33,891 nt of DNA from Mycoplasmataceae bacterium (GTDB lineage Bacteria > Bacillota_I > Bacilli_A > Mycoplasmatales > Mycoplasmoidaceae): contig JAIRTE010000026.1 in assembly GCA_031255095.1 (NCBI GenBank), forward strand, positions 1-33,891, read 5' to 3'. How positions within the stretch are numbered: position 1 is the first letter of the stretch; each line of letters begins with the position of its first letter. Shown piece by piece: positions 1,367-18,175 of this stretch. Below the pieces are notes generated by a model that saw only the letters and a program-made list of their open reading frames with translations, was not told where the DNA came from and did no database searches. The position numbers and the translations under genes were made by a program.

Positions 1367-1759
1367 ATGGGCTTATTTGATTTTTTTAATAATCGAGATA
1401 AATACGAAAGTGATTACAATTCTGATTTACCAAAAAATGGTGCCTGTGTTTGTTTAGCAATTGCACAATATTCACATTGTTCACCTTCTACAATTGCAAA
1501 AGATATGCAAGGTAGATATGGTAGTTCATTTAATCAATTAAATAATGTTGTTGATTATTTACAAAGGAATAATTTTGTTAGGAATGTTAAATACAATCCC
1601 AATATGACTATAGATGATTTTTTGTGTTCAGATTTAACTGATGACAAATATTTAATTGTAGTACCTGGACATATACTTTATTGAAGTAAACAATTATTTG
1701 ATTTTTCAATTAATTTTAAATATAGTGATAAAATTATTTGTTTATTGAGAATGAATTAA
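1367..1759 (+). CDS. Small C39-like cysteine peptidase candidate
   Basis: A 130-aa protein once the TGA at 1682-1684 is read as Trp; it ends at TAA 1757-1759. The N-terminal block NGACVCLAIAQYSHCSPSTI resembles the Cys-box of C39/papain-like peptidases (x-C-G-x-A-C-L). A later VVPGHILYW could supply the catalytic His. It has no signal peptide, transporter domain or visible Gly-Gly substrate, and it is about the size of a bare C39 domain. It starts 26 nt after grpE with TATATT at 1352-1357, 9 nt before the ATG. Its stop lies 6 nt before the hairpin that ends the opposite-strand tracrRNA. The assignment rests on motif resemblance only. Confidence 0.5.
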
Positions 1760-1765
1760 TTTTTT

Positions 1766-1785
1766 GAGTTTAACATTGCAAACTC
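1766..1785. terminator. Hairpin between convergent gene and tracrRNA
   Basis: A perfect 6-bp stem GAGTTT/AAACTC with an 8-nt loop sits just after the stop of the + strand gene and at the 3' end of the minus-strand tracrRNA-like gene. The + side is followed by a weak T-rich stretch (ATAATATTTTTAT). The minus side is not followed by a T tract. It could serve as a weak terminator on the + strand and as the last stem-loop of the tracrRNA on the - strand. Confidence 0.45.
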
Positions 1786-1877
1786 TTGAAATAATATTTT
1801 TATCCCCTTTCGGCGGATAAATAACTTTACATTTTAAATTTATTTGAATATACAGGTGCAAAACCGCGGACAAACCG
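1766..1877 (-). ncRNA. tracrRNA-like gene beside CRISPR array
   Basis: Read on the minus strand, 1863-1842 is TTTTGCACCTGTATATTCAAAT. This pairs with the minus-strand repeat start GTTTGAGACGGGTGCAAAA. The lower stem is 7 bp (GUUUGAG with UUCAAAU, two G-U pairs), then a 3-nt AUA bulge on the tracr side, then a 12-bp upper stem (ACGGGUGCAAAA, one G-U pair). Lower stem, bulge and upper stem is the layout of type II tracrRNA:crRNA duplexes. Downstream come a 27-nt AT-rich linker-type stretch and stem-loop 1 at 1820-1800 (TTATCC-G-CC, GAAA tetraloop, GG-GGATAA). The hairpin at 1785-1766 follows. A start near 1877 is inferred from the -10 box at 1889-1884. The RNA would be about 110 nt. No transcript data are available. 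Confidence 0.7.
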
Positions 1878-1883
1878 GGAAAT

Positions 1884-1913
1884 TTTATAATTTGAGGTTT
1901 GAGACGGTTGTAA
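1884..1913 (-). promoter_or_regulatory. Candidate tracrRNA promoter inside last repeat
   Basis: On the minus strand TATAAA (1889-1884) directly follows the trailer-end repeat. A TTACAA -35-like hexamer (1913-1908) lies 18 bp upstream inside that repeat. This would start transcription near 1877, just before the anti-repeat. The -35 match is 4/6 and -35 boxes are often weak in mycoplasmas. Read-through from the array could also supply the RNA. Confidence 0.45.
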
Positions 1914-2328
1914 TTTTGCACCCGTCTCAAACTTTGCAGTCCTAATGGATGTGGAAAAACATGTTTGAGACGGTTGTAATTTTGCACCCGTCTCAAACAT
2001 GACCAAATAAGAAGTAATAAGTTATCAAGTTTGAGACGGTTGTAATTTTGCACCCGTCTCAAACAATCAACTGAGAATATAGGATTACCACTAAGTTTGA
2101 GACGGTTGTAATTTTGCACCCGTCTCAAACCAATCTGTTAAGTGCTCTTACCTTGTTCTGGTTTGAGACGGTTGTAATTTTGCACCCGTCTCAAACTTAA
2201 ATAATCTAATATAAATATTTCCATTAGTTTGAGACGGTTGTAATTTTGCACCCGTCTCAAACATACTTGATGCATAAAAAAACTAACACAATGTTTGAGA
2301 CGGTTGTAATTTTGCACCCGTCTCAAAC
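1897..2328 (-). CRISPR. CRISPR array, 7 repeats and 6 spacers, type II-like
   Basis: Seven identical 36-bp repeats start at 1897, 1963, 2029, 2095, 2161, 2227 and 2293, separated by six different spacers of exactly 30 bp. Each repeat begins GTTTGAGACGG and ends CCGTCTCAAAC, so its ends are inverted repeats. This is like the GTTTGAGA...TCAAAC repeats of many type II-A loci. The near-palindrome hides direction, but the adjacent tracrRNA-like anti-repeat fits minus-strand crRNA only, so transcription runs from about 2400 toward 1897. There are no degenerate repeats, which suggests no decay at either end. No cas1, cas2, csn2 or cas9 lies anywhere in the window; neighbours are grpE-side genes and the ribosomal operon. 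Spacer origins cannot be checked here. Confidence 0.95.
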
Positions 2329-2473
2329 CAGAAACAAAATGTTTCTGGTTTGAAATCAAAGTGTGGCATATACTGCCTTAGCAAAATTTATTACATCATA
2401 GTATAAAATGTAAAATACGATGTAAATACAACCTAATATTTGAATTTTCAAATAGCTAACTCTATTATAAACT
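2323..2473 (-). promoter_or_regulatory. CRISPR leader with junction hairpin and -10 boxes
   Basis: This is the AT-rich segment upstream of the first repeat. A perfect 14-bp inverted repeat with a 3-nt loop spans the leader-repeat junction. Its arms are 2323-2336 (TCAAACCAGAAACA) and 2340-2353, so the first six bases of the repeat are part of the stem. Candidate minus-strand -10 boxes are TATAAT at 2469-2464 and TATACT at 2405-2400. A short dyad ATTTGA/TCAAAT lies at 2438-2453. The stretch also carries the end of the rpoB operon, with no strong terminator visible. Confidence 0.55.
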
Positions 2474-2587
2474 CTAATGTAAAAAAATTAATACAAAAAC
2501 TAATACTATAGCTAAAAAAATAATAACACTACCTAATATAATAATGGTTTCTTTTTTCTTCTTGTCTAATTTATTAAGAAATTTCAT
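2474..2587 (-). CDS. 37-aa membrane peptide downstream of rpsI
   Basis: An ATG at 2587-2585, 3 nt after the rpsI stop, opens a 37-codon frame ending in TAG at 2476-2474. The peptide has a charged N-terminus (MKFLNKLDKKKKE) and one continuous hydrophobic helix, residues about 14-36 (TIIILGSVIIFLAIV...). It is a typical positive-inside single-span protein and contains no Trp. The tight spacing suggests translational coupling to rpsI. I do not recognise it, and it is too short for confident homology. Conservation beside rpsI in relatives would confirm it. Confidence 0.6.
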   Translation of the reverse strand: MKFLNKLDKKKKETIIILGSVIIFLAIVLVFVLIFLH

Positions 2588-7369: not shown

Positions 7370-10300
7370 TTATTTTATTATACCTCCTTCATTAGTGTTT
7401 TCGTCACTTTTGATTGTAGAAACATATTCATTTACATCTTGAACAGATTTATCACTGAATTCAATTTCCATACCAATACCTAAACCTTGTAAGTACTTAG
7501 TTAATAATTTAAATGATTCTGGAGTTCTAGGTTCAGGGAAAGGCATTTTTTTAATAATTGAAGAATAAGCCATATTACGTCCTTTAACATCATCAGATTT
7601 AATAGTAAGCATTTCACGTAAGTTATATGCAGCACCATATGCTTCAAGTGCTCAAACTTCCATTTCACCCATTCTCTGTCCACCATTTTGTGCCTTACCA
7701 CCTAATGGTTGTTGAGTAATCTTAGAGTATGGTCCAATTGCACGAGCATGTAATTTATCAGCAACCATATGGTTAAGTTTTAATACATGTAATACACCAA
7801 CTGCAATTTTACCATCATATTGTTCACCAGTTTGTCCATCATATAAAGTAACTTTACCTTTATTTTCAATTGGGTTTAAACCAGCTTCAGCTTGAACAGC
7901 AATAATATCATTAATTGTTGCACCATTAAATGCTGGTGAAATTGCTTTATAGTTCAAATCTTCAATTTTTAAACCAGCAGTTTTTAAAATTGCATATAAA
8001 TCTGCAGAAGCAACTTCAGATTTCATTTGTTTAATATATTCTTTTGCAGATTTAACTAATATGTTAGCTTTTTCATATTTAATACCAAATAATTGCACTA
8101 AATCTTCTACAGAACCTTTAGAATTTACTATTTCAAGGAATTTTTTCTTAGCTAATTCTCTCATAGCAAAACCTAAGTGCATTTCACTTATCTGTCCAAT
8201 ATTCATACGTCCTGGAACACCGGCTGAGTTGAAAATAATATCAACTGGTGTACCATCTTCCATAAAAGGCATATCAGCTTCTGGAATAATTAATGAAATA
8301 ACACCTTTGTTACCATGTCTATTAGCTAATTTATCACCAATTTCAATTTTCTTCTTTTGTGCAATTGTTACAATAACTTTTTCAATTACTTCAGAGTTTA
8401 ATAAATAACCTTCAGCAATGTTCATTTTTTTAACTGAAACAATAGTACCTTCAGCACCATGAGGAACTCTTAGTGAAGTATCTTTATAGTTTTTAGTTTT
8501 AGTACCAAATAATTGTTGCATTAATTCTTCTTCTGGAGATAAATCAACTTGACCTCTTGGAGTAATTTTACCAACTAAAATATCACCTTCTTTAACCTCT
8601 GCACCAACAACAATATATCCATCTTCATCAAGATTTCTTTTTTTGTCATCAGGAACATTCATAACTTCTCTAGTAATTTCTTCATCACCATTTTTAGTTT
8701 GAATACATTCAACTTCATATGTTTCAAAAGCAATTGAAGTTAATAAATCATTTTTGTATAAACGGTCAGAAATAACAACACCATCTTCATAGTTGAAACC
8801 TTTTCAGTGCATGAAAGCAACTAATGGGTTAATACCTAAAGCAATTTCCCCATTTTTAATTGCAGGACCATCAGCTAATAAATCACCTTTTGCAATTTTT
8901 TGACCAACATAAACAATTGGAGTTTGATTAATTGAAGTAGATTGGTTAGATCTTGCATATTTAGTTAATTCATATGTTTTTAAAGATTTATCTTCAGTAA
9001 TTACAACAATTTTACTTGAGTCAACATATTTAATTTCCCCATCTTCACCAGCAACAATACTAAAACCAGAATCAGCAGCAATTTTTGCTTCAAAACCAGT
9101 ACCAATTGTTGCAGCATATGGTTCAATTAATGGTAAAGCTTGTCGTTGGAAGTTAGAACCATAAGCAACACGGACACCATCATCTGATTCAATAAATGGT
9201 ACACTTGCTGTTGAAGGAGAAAGAATTTGTGAAGGAATAATATCAACATAATTAACTTCTTTAGGTTTAAAGAATTTATTAGTTTGGTGGAAACGACCTT
9301 CAACAACTTCTTCAATAATTTTACCTTTATCATCAGTTTTTGTTCTAGAAGAAGCAACTACATAATCATATTCTTTAGTTGCTGTTAAATATTCAATTTC
9401 ATCAGTAATAACACCATCAATAACTTTCTTGTATGGAGTTAAAATGAAACCATTAGTATCTACTTTTGCATAGATAGCTAAAGAAAGAATTAAACCAACA
9501 TTAGCACCTTCAGGAGTTTCAATTGGACAAATACGTCCATAATGTGTAAAGTGAATATCACGGATTGAAAGGTTAGGGTCTTCTCTAGAAACACCACCTT
9601 CACCTAAAGAAGATATTCTACGTTTATTAGTTAATTCAGATAGTGGGTTTGTTTGATCAACAAATTGAGTTAAATCATAAGTGTTAAAGAAATTTTTAAC
9701 TGCTAATTGTAAAACTTTAGTATTAACAATATTTCTTAAATTAACCTTTTGTTCAAGTTTTTCTTTTGTTAAACCTTTAGCAGTTACTAAATATAAAGAA
9801 GCAAGTTTTTCAAAAGTAAATTTAACAATTCTTGATAAACCTTTAGAGAAGTGTTTTTTAAATTGTTCATCAACTAAACGTAAACGTTTGTTAGATAAAT
9901 CTTCTGTATCATCATAATTACCAATACCATATTCTAAACCTAAAGTATATGAAATTGCTGATAATAAATCTTGAGTTGTTAAAGCAGTTGTTTCAATTGT
10001 ATTGTTAACTGAAATAATGTTAAAAATTTGTTTAGAGTTATTCTTATAAATAGCAATAGTTTCATAAATACTATTACTTTTCTTTTGGAAAGAACAAGGT
10101 TCATTAATAGGAATTTGTTTAGAAAAATTCAAATCACCATTAGCTAAAGCTTTTTTAATAATATTTAATTCTTCAATTAAAACTAATTGATCTTTTTTTA
10201 ATAATACTTTACCATCTTTAGTTACAATATCTTGAGCTAAAGTATTAGAATATAAACGTTCAGTTAAACGAGATTTGTGAATGATTTTATATCTACCAGC

Positions 10301-11383
10301 ATTTGACAATGAATAATATTTAGAATCAAAAAAGTTACGACATAAAACATCTTGATAACAAATTTTTTCGCTTGTTCCACCAAAATCAACTGCTTTTGTT
10401 GAAATTCCTAATTCTTCAATAATATATCTAGCAGCTAATTCTGTAATAATTGAATCAATTTTTTTACTTTTTTCATTTTTAATAACTTCATTAACTAAAT
10501 TTTTTAATTTAATTTCTAATGGACTACCAGTTAAAGAATTTTCAAAACCATTTTTAATTATGTTATTTTTGATTTCCAAATAATATTTGTCGTTAAAAAT
10601 TTTTGTGTCATTATATTTATCAAAAGCTAAAGTATTTTGGATAACTGTTGAACCTGCATATACATCAGCAATATTTTTTTCACTCATACCCATAGCTTTC
10701 AATAAAATTGTCACTGGAATAGTAACAATTGATTCACCATTTAATGATCTCATTGAAACTAATAATATTTTTTCATTCTCAGCTTTACCGGTAATGTGGA
10801 AATGCATTAAAGTACCATGAGATGGTAAAATTTCACAGTTATTAGTTTCAATAACTTTTTTCTTCTTTAATAATCTAATTTGTGCATTTTCAAATGCATA
10901 TAATCCAGCAGCTTTAACTAACTGATTAACAACATTCTTTTCAATACCATTAATAATAAAAGTACCAGAATCTGTCATTAGTGGAATGTTAGTTAGGAAA
11001 ACACCACTTGAAATATTACTCTTTGTTTTTTTATTTTTAATAATTTCACCAGTTTCATTATTAACAATATAAATGTCAGCAAATAAAGATGCTTCATAAC
11101 TTTTACCTTGTTCTAAAGAATCTTTAATTGAAAATAATGGTTTAGTGAATGATACACCACCACATCTTACTTCATATTTAGTGTTTTTAGGGTTTGCAAC
11201 TGGGAATTGACTTAATACTAAATTTTTAATCTCTTTTTCTAAAAAGTTTTTGTATGCAGTTTTATTGATTTCTAAAAACTCTGATTGTTCAAAACTTGCA
11301 GGTATAAAGACTTTAGAAAAATCCTTACGAAGAATTAATGATGATATTTTTTTATCAGGAAAATTTGTAGTTTTTGAAGCCAT
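7370..11383 (-). CDS. rpoB: RNA polymerase beta subunit
   Basis: 1337 aa, with TGA-Trp at several points. The rifampicin-pocket region reads [20 protein letters not shown], followed by [17 protein letters not shown]. The residue equal to E. coli His526 is Asn (codon 9626-9628), a change linked to natural rifampicin insensitivity of mollicutes. The C-terminal half has the conserved [13 protein letters not shown], then [16 protein letters not shown] and [20 protein letters not shown]. It is first gene of an operon continuing rpoC, rplM and rpsI. The start MASKTTNFP follows a 5' UTR of about 74 nt with a stem-loop. rplJ/rplL, the usual upstream genes, are absent here. Confidence 0.98.
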
Positions 11384-11402
11384 GTAATTTATAAGTAAAA
11401 AT

Positions 11403-11471
11403 AGGAAATGTAGTTTGCCCCCAAAGCTAGTTGGTAAGTATCTAAAAACTACCTGATAAGTTAATTATACA
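11403..11471 (-). promoter_or_regulatory. rpoB promoter and structured 5' leader
   Basis: On the minus strand an extended -10 TGTATAAT (11471-11464) predicts a start near 11457. The leader then forms a perfect 7-bp outer stem GTAGTTT/AAACTAC (11452-11446 with 11416-11410). It encloses CCAA...TTGG and a GGGGG run that stand out in this AT-rich genome. Nearly all other first genes here have almost no leader, so a 74-nt structured leader may be regulatory, for example autogenous control. It matches no riboswitch I know. Confidence 0.5.
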
Positions 11472-11521
11472 TATTTTTTTAAATTAATAAATAAATTTTA
11501 AATTTTTATAATTAAAATATT

Positions 11522-12001
11522 TTAAAATATTTTATTTCTATCTAAACGTTCTTTATGCTCTGTTAAAGTGGCTTCAATCTTATCAAGTCTTCTTCCATGC
11601 TCAACCAAAGTTGCTTCAATCTTATCGAGTCTTTTTCCATGTTCAACCAAAGTTGCTTCAATCTTATCAAGTCTTTTTCCGTGTTCAACTAATGTTGCCT
11701 CAATCTTATCAAGTCTCTTTCCATGTTCAACTAATGTTTCTTCAATCTTATCGAGTCTTCTTCCATGCTCTGCCAAAGTTGCTTCAATTCTTGCAATAGT
11801 TGGCAAAAATACATTATCAACAAATTCTTTGAATCATGCTGGTTGTTTATTTCTCCTATGATGTTTTTTAATTTTCTTATGACCAGTAACTCCTTCACCG
11901 ACTTTTTCAAATTGAACAGTCATTTCAGTACCTTCCTTGATCGGTTTACCTCTTATACTGGTTATCACAAACTTTGCCACTCTTCCAAAAAATCTCTTCA
12001 T
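11522..12001 (-). CDS. Basic coiled-coil protein with 14-residue repeats
   Basis: 159 aa from the ATG at 12001, reading one TGA as Trp (QPAWFKEF). Residues 1-60 are strongly basic (MKRFFGRVAKF, HKKIKKHHRRNK). After a short amphipathic stretch come five near-identical 14-residue units (LDKIEATLVEHGKR type), two heptads each, ending RLDRNKIF. This predicts a parallel coiled-coil oligomer with a nucleic-acid- or membrane-binding head. AAAGGAGG lies about 22 nt before the ATG, unusually far, and an in-frame stop blocks an earlier start. It is 138 nt upstream of rpoB in the same direction. The family is not recognised. Confidence 0.7.
11571..11780 (-). repeat. 42-bp in-frame tandem repeats (5 units)
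   Basis: Units begin at 11571, 11613, 11655, 11697 and 11739, each 42 bp, differing at only a few positions. A partial sixth begins at 11781. They encode the 14-residue coiled-coil units. Because 42 is divisible by 3, gain or loss of units by slippage keeps the frame. Confidence 0.9.
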
Positions 12002-12184
12002 AGATGATTATAGTTATTCCCTTCCTCCTTTCTCAAACAAAGTATTTAGGAAATCCAAAATGTTTTGTTTTAAAACTAAATTAAAATTGATTTTATTTTT
12101 GATGTTTTCCATACCTATACTACAAGATTTGCTATTTTTGAGCAAATTTTTCTATAGGAAAAATGATAAAAATAAATTAGCTTT

Positions 12185-12245
12185 TATATACGTAGTATAT
12201 AACTAAAATTTTTTAAAAATTTTTGTAATATATACATAGTATATA
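12185..12245. promoter_or_regulatory. Two copies of a 17-bp palindrome, 44 bp apart
   Basis: TATATAC-GTA-GTATATA at 12185-12201 and TATATAC-ATA-GTATATA at 12229-12245 have identical 7-bp arms and a 3-bp centre that differs by one base. The 44-bp offset is close to four helical turns. This looks like a pair of operator half-sites for a dimeric regulator of the divergent genes, although AT-rich sequence makes chance dyads more likely. Confidence 0.4.
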
Positions 12246-12502
12246 TTAAATTTTTTTTCTCCTCAGCACAACATCAAACATGGCATAAAAAATGCATCAA
12301 AAAAGTTGGTTAAATTTCAACAATGTTTTTAGCAAAATTTCAGAGTCTTATAAATGAAAACTTATTTTAGCACTTCTAAGACTTATTTTATTAATGTATG
12401 GTATCTGCATATCAACACTATATATTTTATCGCTTAAAATGGTTATTTTAGCTATAAATTACCTGAATTTTAATATATTGTTATATTTACAAAAAATTTA
12501 TT

Positions 12503-12520
12503 ACTTATCAAAAGATAAGT
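12503..12520. other. Perfect short hairpin upstream of pepT
   Basis: ACTTATC-AAAA-GATAAGT forms a 7-bp stem with a 4-nt loop. On the minus strand it is followed by AATAAATTTTTTG, so it could be a weak minus-strand terminator; on the plus strand it has no T tract. Its role is undetermined. Confidence 0.35.
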
Positions 12521-12619
12521 AAAACAAGATGTTATATTAATTTTAATAATGTAATACAAATAGTATATTCATGCATGTGCATTAATGCCTTAGAAATAAA
12601 ATATATAATAAAAAATGAT

Positions 12620-13831
12620 ATGGAATTACTTGATAAGTTTTTAAAATATATTAGCATTGATACACAATCTTCAGAAGAAAATTCTGATGAAACTCCATCA
12701 ACTAAAAAACAATTTGACCTTTTAAATTATTTAAAAAAAGAAATTGAAGATTATGATTTTAAGCCAGTTTTAAGTAAATATGGTTATCTATATTTATTTA
12801 TTCCTTCAAATAATCCTAAAATTAAAAAATCTGTTGGTTTTTTAGCTCATGTTGATACTTCACCTGATGCTGATGGAAAAAATATTAAACCTAGAATTAT
12901 CAAAAATTACCAAGGAGAAGATATCAAGCTTTCTTCTAAATGGACGACAACAACTAAGAATTTCCATGAATTAAAAAAAGTAATTGGCGATAGTTTAGTT
13001 GTTACTAATGGTGAAACATTATTAGGTGCAGATGATAAAGCTGGTATTGCTGTTATCATGCATTTAATTGAATTTTATTCTAGAAACAAAGACTACCCAC
13101 ATGGTGATTTATATTTTTGTTTTACACCTGATGAAGAAATTGGCAATGGTACAAAATATATTGATTTAAAATTATTCAAACCAGAATTTGCTTTTACACT
13201 TGATGGTTCAGATGTAAATTGTTTTGAATTTGAAACGTTTAATGCTGCTAGTGCAAAAGTGACTATTGAAGGTAAATCAGTGCACCCAGGAAGTGCTAAA
13301 AATAAAATGGTTAATGCTGCTATGATTGCAACAGAATTTGAAAGTTTATTACCTCCAAAAATGAAACCTCAATATACTGAAAATTATGAAGGTTTTAATC
13401 ATTTAACAAAACTTTCTGGTAATGTAGAAAAAGCAGAAATGAATTATATCATTAGAAATCATCACCGTGAATCTTTTGAAAAACAAAAAATTTTTTTCAA
13501 GGAAGTTGAACGAGCCTTGAATAGAAAATATCATTATAAGGCAGTTAAGGTAGAAATACACGATCAATATTACAACATGGGAGAAGTGTTACATAGTAAA
13601 AAATGAATAATTAACTTAATTGTAGATTCTATGAAACAAATTGGTTTGAAACCTTATTCAATTCCTATAAGGGGTGGAACAGATGGTGCTAAACTTTCAT
13701 TTATGGGTATACCCTGTCCAAATATTGGTGCTGGTGGTTTTTGCTTCCATGGCAGATATGAATTTTTATCAATTAATCAATTAAATAAATCTTATGAATT
13801 AGTTAGGCAAATAATTGATAATATTAAGTAA
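12620..13831 (+). CDS. pepT: Peptidase T (tripeptide aminopeptidase), M20 family
   Basis: 403 aa from the ATG at 12620 (MELLDKFLKYISIDTQS), the usual PepT start; an in-frame ATG 45 nt earlier would add an atypical tail. It removes the N-terminal residue of tripeptides using two zinc ions in the cytosol. This suits an organism living on imported peptides. Metal ligands are visible: His77/Asp79 in LAHVDTSPDADG, Asp138 in GADDKAG, Glu172-Glu173 in PDEEIGNG, Asp in TLDGSD and the late His in FCFHGRYEF. One TGA-Trp occurs (KKWIINL). Length matches the family (about 405). A terminator follows directly. Confidence 0.95.
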
Positions 13832-16353: not shown

Positions 16354-16911
16354 ATGAATAAAAATAAGCTGTTAAAATATATCAAAGAAAACTTTACTAA
16401 AAAATTAATTTTTTTAAGAACAATCATATTTTTAGGAGCTTTAGCAATTGTTTTAAGTATTGTTTTACCACTTAATTTATACTTTAGCAAATTTGAAGAA
16501 AATACTTCCATAGGAAATGGGTTTATTTATGTGATAATTAGACATAATACTGGTTTAAGTTTTTCGTCATTTGAAAATAATCCAACACTTTCAATTGTTA
16601 TTTCTTCATTGGTATGCAGTTTTGTCATCATTCTTTTGATTTTTCAAAAGAAATGATATTATATTTTTCTTTTATCTCTAACTGTTGCTGGATCAATTTT
16701 TAACATTTGTGATAAAATTACTAATGGTTATGTATTAGATTATTTTACTTTCAAACCTGAATGGTTAAATACTTCAGTTTGAAATATGCCTGATGTTTTT
16801 GTCTTAACAGGGGTTATTGGGTATGAATTACTCTATATTGTTTTGTTAATTGCTGGTCATGTCAAGAACAAAAAAATAAATACTAATGAAACTAACAATG
16901 AACAAAAATAA
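16354..16911 (+). CDS. lspA: Lipoprotein signal peptidase (signal peptidase II)
   Basis: 185 aa, including TGA-Trp codons. An aspartyl protease of the membrane that cleaves the signal peptide before the lipidated Cys. Four hydrophobic segments are visible (about 21-44, 78-97, 101-116, 147-166). The family blocks are present: HNTGLSFS (usual NxGAAF), ICDKITNGYVLDYFTF with catalytic Asp129, and WNMPDVFVLTGV with catalytic Asp147 (usual FNxADxxI). The C-terminus is a short polar Asn/Lys tail. Its end overlaps the start of the pseudouridine synthase gene, an arrangement common in bacteria. Confidence 0.9.
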
Positions 16912-17614
16912 TTACACTGGCTTTGAAATAATTGATGAAACTAACAATTATTTTGTTATTAATAAATTTAAAAATATTTTGGTGCATAGTGATGGAAAAG
17001 ATACTTCAATTAACATTGTTGATCAATTGAGAGATAAAATAAATGTCTCTGAATTTGATGATCAAATTAGACCAGGTGTTTTTCAACGTTTAGATAAACA
17101 AACATCAGGTTTAATGTTGATTGCTAAAAATAAAAAAACATATGATTATTTCCAAAATGCTACTCTAAATAAGACATTAGTTAAATCTTATTTAGCAATC
17201 GTTCACAATCGAATTAATGAAACACGAATGCTTTTAAAATTGCCTTTAGAACGTGTTAAAGATATTTCTAAGTTCAAAGTTTCCTCAACTCACAATGCTA
17301 AAATGTCAATTACTGAAGTGATAGTTTTAGAAAATTATCAATATTCTGCATTGGTGGAGTGTATTTTACATACTGGCAGAACTCATCAAGTGCGTGTACA
17401 TTTATCATATATCAAACATCCAATCTTTAATGATCTTTTATATGGTAAAGATGATAACTATGGAAAAGATTATGGACAATTTTTATTTTCTCATAAAATA
17501 ATTTTTACTGATATTGAAGATAACAAAGTTAAGGAGTATAAAATTCAACCTGATGCAACTTTTACAGCATTGTTGGAAAAATTACGAAATTGTAAGATAA
17601 TAAAAGTGGATTAA
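16886..17614 (+). CDS. RluA/RluD-family pseudouridine synthase
   Basis: 242 aa if the ATG at 16886 is used; an in-frame ATG at 16898 would shorten it by 4 residues. Both overlap the 3' end of lspA. It converts specific uridines in rRNA or tRNA to pseudouridine. The catalytic motif is QRLDKQTSGLML with Asp70; other family blocks are KSYLAIV and LHTGRTHQVRVHLSYIKHPIFNDLLYG (given here as adjoining segments LHTGRTHQVRVH and HPIFNDLLYG). There is no N-terminal S4 domain, so it is a short form. Which site it modifies cannot be told from sequence. The next gene starts 6 nt later. Confidence 0.92.
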   Translation: MKLTMNKNNYTGFEIIDETNNYFVINKFKNILVHSDGKDTSINIVDQLRDKINVSEFDDQIRPGVFQRLDKQTSGLMLIAKNKKTYDYFQNATLNKTLVKSYLAIVHNRINETRMLLKLPLERVKDISKFKVSSTHNAKMSITEVIVLENYQYSALVECILHTGRTHQVRVHLSYIKHPIFNDLLYGKDDNYGKDYGQFLFSHKIIFTDIEDNKVKEYKIQPDATFTALLEKLRNCKIIKVD

Positions 17615-17620
17615 AAGTAT

Positions 17621-18175
17621 ATGAATTTATTTATTGATTGCACACAGAAAAATTTCTATTTAGGAATATTTGAAAATAACAGTTTTGTTGATAAGCAAAT
17701 TATTCCAACCAACAATAACCTTACTGATATAGCGATTGAATATATTGGAAAATTATTAACTAAAAATAATCTTAAAAAAACTGATATTAAATCTATTTAT
17801 TTAGTTTTAGGACCAGGTAGTTTTACTGGAGTTAGAGTTGGAATACTAATCACACAAAGTTGAATCTCAATTTTTAAAGATGTAAAATGTAATGTTATTT
17901 CTTCATTGGAATTACAAATGCAATGTGAAAATTGCATTTCAATTATTGAAAATAAATCAAAATCATTCGTTAGTGTTAAAAAAGATAATATTTTAGTAAT
18001 ACAACCACAATATTTAGATAATATTGAAATTGAAAAAATATGCGAGCAGTATATTAATGCTAAAATTATTAAAAATTATCAAAACATTGATATTTTTGAA
18101 AATGTTATTTATAATATAAAAAACTTTAAATTAAGTGAAAATATTGAACCACTATATTTAAAGGAGGCTTTATAA
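17621..18175 (+). CDS. tsaB: TsaB, tRNA t6A biosynthesis scaffold protein
   Basis: 184 aa, reading one TGA as Trp (TQSWISIF). TsaB (YeaZ) pairs with TsaD to make N6-threonylcarbamoyladenosine at position 37 of ANN-decoding tRNAs. The diagnostic block GPGSFTGVRVG is at residues about 67-77, in an actin-like ATPase fold starting MNLFIDCTQKNFYLGIF. The C-terminal half is short and divergent, as in other mollicutes. It lies 6 nt after the pseudouridine synthase and 1 nt before the surface-protein gene, so it is part of the operon. Confidence 0.9.

What the first reader, a model, noticed from the sequence alone, without database searches (positions are those of the whole stretch)
1766..2328. Stand-alone CRISPR array with its own tracrRNA and no cas genes
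Minus-strand bases 1863-1842 pair with the first 19 nt of the CRISPR repeat as 7 bp, a 3-nt bulge and 12 bp, the classic type II duplex layout. A tetraloop hairpin and a second hairpin follow. Array and tracrRNA-like gene are on one strand with about 20 bp between them, yet both flanks are housekeeping genes and no Cas protein is encoded. All repeats are intact, which argues against simple decay. It could be a remote crRNA/tracrRNA supply for a Cas9 elsewhere, or an RNA unit with another use.
Basis: partly seen in the sequence, partly recalled or inferred. Interest (0 to 1): 0.85.

Follow-up and report, generated by a model that had tools for sequence, protein, structure and literature searches.

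The report
Detached Cas9 guide cassette, copied whole
A small bacterium of the mycoplasma kind carries a second copy of the RNA part of its Cas9 immune system (leader, CRISPR array and tracrRNA) far from its cas genes, with different spacers, so one Cas9 probably draws on two separate memory banks; an unusual but ordinary-mechanism arrangement.

Summary
On the minus strand, 7 identical 36-nt repeats with six 30-nt spacers (1897-2328) are followed by a tracrRNA-like element whose anti-repeat (1842-1863) pairs with repeat nt 1-19 as 7 bp, a 3-nt bulge and 12 bp. No cas gene or remnant is detected in the window. The rest of the genome explains it. Contig C42 carries a complete type II-A locus (cas1-cas2-csn2, leader, array, tracrRNA, convergent cas9) with exactly the same repeat and a 93-95% identical tracrRNA. 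The window unit is a paralogue of the whole non-coding stretch between csn2 and cas9. All spacers differ. The parts expected to matter are kept: all 13 repeats identical; the last 40 nt of the leader identical while the rest is 83%; tracrRNA changes tolerated in the predicted structures. In four other lineages of the genus the anti-repeat covaries with the repeat, but the detached copy was found only here. Most likely it supplies crRNA and tracrRNA in trans to the C42 Cas9, and Cas1-Cas2-Csn2 updates it. Expression, targets and function were not shown. A cas-less second array with a putative tracrRNA was reported in Spiroplasma syrphidicola, so this is a new member of a known kind.

The parts
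2329..2473 (-). Leader, homologous to the C42 leader between csn2 and its array; last 40 nt identical, rest 83%
2321..2355 (-). Predicted 16-bp RNA hairpin between leader end and first repeat (3-nt loop), kept in both copies
2293..2328 (-). CRISPR repeat 1 (leader-proximal)
2227..2262 (-). CRISPR repeat 2
2161..2196 (-). CRISPR repeat 3
2095..2130 (-). CRISPR repeat 4
2029..2064 (-). CRISPR repeat 5
1963..1998 (-). CRISPR repeat 6
1897..1932 (-). CRISPR repeat 7 (terminal, not degenerate)
2263..2292 (-). Spacer 1 (leader-proximal), not in the C42 array
2197..2226 (-). Spacer 2
2131..2160 (-). Spacer 3
2065..2094 (-). Spacer 4
1999..2028 (-). Spacer 5
1933..1962 (-). Spacer 6 (last)
1864..1896 (-). 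Linker from terminal repeat to anti-repeat; conserved in C42; holds a TATAAAAT candidate -10 box (1889-1882), which the consensus scan did not report, and a GGTTTG stretch that can pair with the 3' end of the repeat
   Evidence: promoter role inferred from sequence
1842..1863 (-). tracrRNA anti-repeat: 7 bp + 3-nt bulge + 12 bp with repeat nt 1-19
1800..1820 (-). tracrRNA hairpin (TTATCC/GGATAA stem, GAAA loop), nexus-like
1766..1785 (-). Second hairpin, candidate 3' end of the tracrRNA; not conserved in C42 and lacks a U-run, so the terminator is unproven

Best explanation
It is a second, cas-less copy of the RNA module of the organism's own type II-A CRISPR-Cas9 system. An intergenic unit consisting of leader, array and tracrRNA was copied to (or from) the space downstream of rpsI. 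There it would be transcribed towards lower coordinates. The tracrRNA made there, or at C42, pairs with the pre-crRNA; RNase III and the C42 Cas9 would process it and Cas9 would use the crRNAs. Because the leader end and repeats are intact, the C42 Cas1-Cas2-Csn2 can probably insert spacers in this array too, which would explain why no spacer is shared. Shown: anatomy, paralogy, repeat identity, intact cas genes in the same assembly, no cas remnants here, covariation of the anti-repeat. Inferred: transcription, processing, use by Cas9, trans adaptation, direction of copying.
For: cas9 on C42 with HNH and RuvC motifs, plus cas1, cas2 and csn2 over curated cut-offs. Identical repeat in 7 + 6 copies and nowhere else in the genome. 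Only two tracrRNA places. Leader 87.5% identical overall, last 40 nt 100%; first 100 nt after the array 93%, next 47 columns 64%. Substitutions fit the RNA: the window anti-repeat has T-A where C42 has a C-A mismatch and T-G where C42 has C-G, and the hairpin change falls on an unpaired base. With the four other genomes that carry this repeat type, pairing is kept through two-sided changes at repeat positions 9, 10, 12, 14, 16 and 18. Leader/first-repeat hairpin in both copies, a structure reported to guard crRNA production in II-A systems (PMC12080349, PMC12814883). Spacers completely different.
Against: No protospacer found for any spacer searched. No canonical terminator at the window tracrRNA. 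No transcript data. The detached copy was found in one genome only, a 52-contig draft whose read coverage cannot be checked.
Confidence: 0.8

Rival explanations
1. Remnant of a second complete CRISPR-Cas locus that lost its cas genes, now inactive.
For: No cas genes nearby; terminator region diverged; no known targets.
Against: No cas remnant by tblastn at E <= 10 beyond chance hits. All seven repeats identical, including the terminal one. The conserved parts are the functional ones: leader end, repeats, anti-repeat. The homology stops near the csn2 end and before the cas9 stop, as expected for a copied intergenic unit.
Confidence: 0.1
2. Natural single guide: read-through from the array into the tracrRNA lets the terminal repeat pair in cis with the anti-repeat, giving a joined guide carrying the last spacer, possibly a regulatory one. 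(An add-on to the main reading rather than exclusive of it.)
For: In both loci array and tracrRNA are on one strand about 30 nt apart. The predicted fold of the joined stretch pairs the whole terminal repeat with the anti-repeat and linker (-42.2 and -41.0 kcal/mol).
Against: A candidate promoter box in the linker suggests separate tracrRNA transcription. No chromosomal target of the last spacer was seen. A folding prediction alone.
Confidence: 0.15
3. Assembly artefact: a chimaera, or a related strain's locus joined into this contig.
For: Draft genome of 52 contigs; detached copy seen in one genome only.
Against: The cassette is internal to a 33.9-kb contig beside rpsI in the conserved rpoC-rplM-rpsI context. 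It differs from C42 by substitutions along leader and tracrRNA and by all spacers, so it is not the same DNA assembled twice. Estimated contamination 0.59%.
Confidence: 0.05

Closest known systems
Second CRISPR locus of Spiroplasma syrphidicola EA1 (Ipoutcha et al. 2019, PMC6882279)
   Same: Mollicute; array of 9 repeats without cas genes, with a putative tracrRNA, in a genome that has a cas9 locus elsewhere
   Different: Reported in one sentence as 'not shown'; type II-C genome; relation of repeat, leader and tracrRNA to the main locus not given. Here type II-A and a demonstrated paralogue of the main leader-array-tracrRNA unit
Orphan CRISPR2 of Enterococcus faecalis (PMC4894674, PMC5491264)
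   Same: Cas-less type II array that works only with factors of another locus: Cas9 with its predicted tracrRNA
   Different: There the tracrRNA supplied came from CRISPR1-cas and the terminal repeat is degenerate; here the detached unit has its own tracrRNA copy and leader, and the terminal repeat is intact
Type II-A leader RNA hairpin with the first repeat (Liao et al. 2022, as described in PMC12080349 and PMC12814883)
   Same: The leader end pairs with the first repeat, predicted here as a 16-bp stem in both copies
   Different: Prediction only here

Membership tests
CRISPR array | Identical direct repeats regularly spaced by unique spacers of equal length | tested here: met
   7 identical 36-nt repeats, six 30-nt spacers
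CRISPR array | Leader next to the first repeat | tested here: met
   Leader homologous to that of C42; last 40 nt identical
CRISPR array | Spacers derived from mobile elements | tested here: inconclusive
   No protospacer in phages, plasmids, family genomes or, for five window spacers, viral contigs
Type II tracrRNA | Anti-repeat pairing with the repeat's 5' part, with a bulge | tested here: met
   7 bp + 3-nt bulge + 12 bp; covariation over five genomes
Type II tracrRNA | Hairpin(s) and Rho-independent terminator with U-run after the anti-repeat | tested here: inconclusive
   Hairpins present, no U-run terminator found in window; relatives show T-runs after the hairpin
Type II tracrRNA | Match to the Rfam tracrRNA family | tested here: not met
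   No such match even at E <= 5. Not a defining feature in practice: tracrRNAs of mollicutes are reported as very diverse
Type II-A CRISPR-Cas system (the genome's) | cas9, cas1, cas2 and csn2 present | tested here: met
   On contig C42, not in the window
Type II-A CRISPR-Cas system (the genome's) | crRNA/tracrRNA expressed and used by Cas9 | not testable with these tools
   Needs RNA-seq or Cas9 pull-down

The most novel reading that the evidence does not exclude
A self-contained, cas-free guide cassette that adapts on its own with borrowed Cas1-Cas2-Csn2 and gives, by read-through, a natural single guide RNA from its last spacer, so that new memory banks can be seeded by copying one intergenic unit.
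Probability: 0.15. Interest if true: 0.65.

Novelty: new member of a known kind. Interest (0 to 1): 0.42.

Why it matters
It shows that in a minimal genome the entire RNA side of a Cas9 system can exist as a second unit away from its proteins, with its own leader and tracrRNA. Two paralogous tracrRNAs and leaders, with two differing spacer sets in one cell, are a natural experiment on trans adaptation and on which tracrRNA positions tolerate change. It also warns that arrays called orphan from a local view may have their Cas9 elsewhere in the same genome.

Tried and rejected
Rfam gave no tracrRNA match; the miRNA-like hits at permissive thresholds are palindromic-repeat noise below the gathering scores. 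Protospacer searches in 95 family genomes, phages, plasmids and viral contigs gave only chance-level partial matches. The same repeat was not found in viral contigs or elsewhere among 298 genomes of the order, so there is no sign of recent transfer. The Cas9 protein scan of genome contigs found only two remote Bacteroidales hits and gave no name for the organism. Cas remnants beside the cassette: none. The second Cas9 of the genome (contig C13) as user of this array: not favoured, because the identical repeat and tracrRNA lie beside the C42 cas9; the C13 array was not seen because the contig ends. Conservation of the detached unit in relatives: not found; arrays of this repeat type lie next to cas9 in G054, G048 and G046, and in G049 on the cas9 contig and at the start of one other contig, probably the rest of the same array. 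Family searches of the neighbouring 130-aa ORF gave nothing useful.

Full report
What is there. The window is a contig (C30) of a 997-kb, 52-contig draft genome. ORFs read through TGA under code 4 and the window's G+C is 27%, which fits a mollicute; no species name could be obtained. On the minus strand, seven identical 36-nt repeats at 1897-2328 enclose six 30-nt spacers. About 33 nt beyond the terminal repeat lies an anti-repeat (1863-1842) that pairs with repeat nt 1-19 as 7 bp, a 3-nt bulge on the tracr side and 12 bp, -23.9 kcal/mol. This is the best site in the whole window outside the array and is not matched by 300 shuffled repeats. A GAAA-capped hairpin (1800-1820) and a weaker hairpin (1766-1785) follow. 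Neighbours are grpE and an unassigned 130-aa ORF on one side and rpsI on the other. No cas remnants were detected.

Where the proteins are. The same genome encodes two Cas9 proteins. Contig C42 holds cas1, cas2 and csn2, then a leader, six copies of exactly the same repeat, a tracrRNA, and a convergent 1500-aa cas9. The Cas9 keeps the RuvC-I GIDIG and HNH DHIIP motifs, seen against solved Cas9 structures. The tracrRNA query matched only C30 and C42 above noise. A second type II locus on C13 has a different Cas9; its contig ends about 110 nt after the csn2-position ORF, so its array is not seen.

What was copied. Homology between window and C42 runs from about 2473 in the leader, through the array, to about 1797 after the tracrRNA hairpin, and fades beyond. 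In C42 this is the non-coding space between csn2 and the cas9 stop. The leader is 87.5% identical overall, but its last 40 nt show no change. At the 83% seen in the rest, 40 unchanged columns would be expected with probability about 0.0007 (my estimate, treating columns as independent). The first 100 nt after the array are 93% identical and the next 47 columns 64%. Repeats are identical in all 13 copies. No spacer is shared; the best ungapped identity is 15 of 30. This pattern fits two units under similar constraint with separate spacer histories better than decay.

RNA evidence. Four other genomes of the genus carry related repeats near cas9 with an anti-repeat. Across the six loci the pairing is kept through two-sided changes at repeat positions 9, 10, 12, 14, 16 and 18, direct support that this is a tracrRNA. 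The window anti-repeat pairs at a position where C42 has a C-A mismatch, so it is at least as good a partner. In both copies the leader end and first repeat form a predicted 16-bp hairpin, like the type II-A leader hairpin reported to suppress a useless first crRNA (PMC12080349, PMC12814883). The terminal repeat can also pair in cis with the downstream anti-repeat in a read-through RNA; whether such RNA exists is unknown.

How it most likely works. Transcribed from the leader, the array would give a pre-crRNA; tracrRNA from either locus pairs with it; RNase III and the C42 Cas9 mature it. The unit is then a second memory bank for one Cas9. The shared leader end and repeat make insertion by the C42 Cas1-Cas2-Csn2 plausible; arrays with the same repeat are reported to be updated about equally often whatever their distance from cas (PMC12814883). 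All these steps are inferred; no expression, targets or activity were measured.

Distribution. Outside this genome the repeat was not found in 95 family genomes, 298 order genomes or viral contigs at the stated mismatches. The detached unit was found in this genome only, although the rpoC-rpsI context is shared by most of the genus.

Comparison. A cas-less second array with a putative tracrRNA was mentioned for Spiroplasma syrphidicola EA1 (PMC6882279), and E. faecalis CRISPR2 shows that cas-less type II arrays work with Cas9 and tracrRNA of another locus (PMC4894674, PMC5491264). The present case is therefore a new member of a known kind. What it adds is a clear demonstration that the entire leader-array-tracrRNA unit has a paralogue with a distinct spacer set.

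Noticed in passing
L020 (G000:C13:44000-56854), 7568-12745: A second type II CRISPR-Cas locus in the same genome: 1075-aa Cas9, Cas1, Cas2 and a 231-aa ORF in the csn2 position that matches no NCBIfam or Pfam family; the contig ends before any array.
   Followed up: partly
window 1367-1759 (+): 130-aa ORF between grpE and the tracrRNA, no Pfam match; weak relatives in only two of 95 family genomes (G055, G089).
   Followed up: partly
window 11520-12524; L019 (C42) 1-382 and 16600-18130: Dispersed repeat family, 75-95% identical between the two contigs, overlapping short repeated ORFs on C42; such repeats could have mediated rearrangements.
   Followed up: no
L020 3665-3828 and 4551-4714: A 164-nt stretch duplicated at 95% beside a DNA-glycosylase-like gene (MPELPEVQ start), suggesting a partial gene copy.
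   Followed up: no
window 2474-2587 (-): Possible 37-aa membrane peptide (MKFLNKLDKKKKETIIILGSVIIFLAIVLVFVLIFLH) between rpsI and the leader; its stop abuts the start of the leader homology.
   Followed up: no
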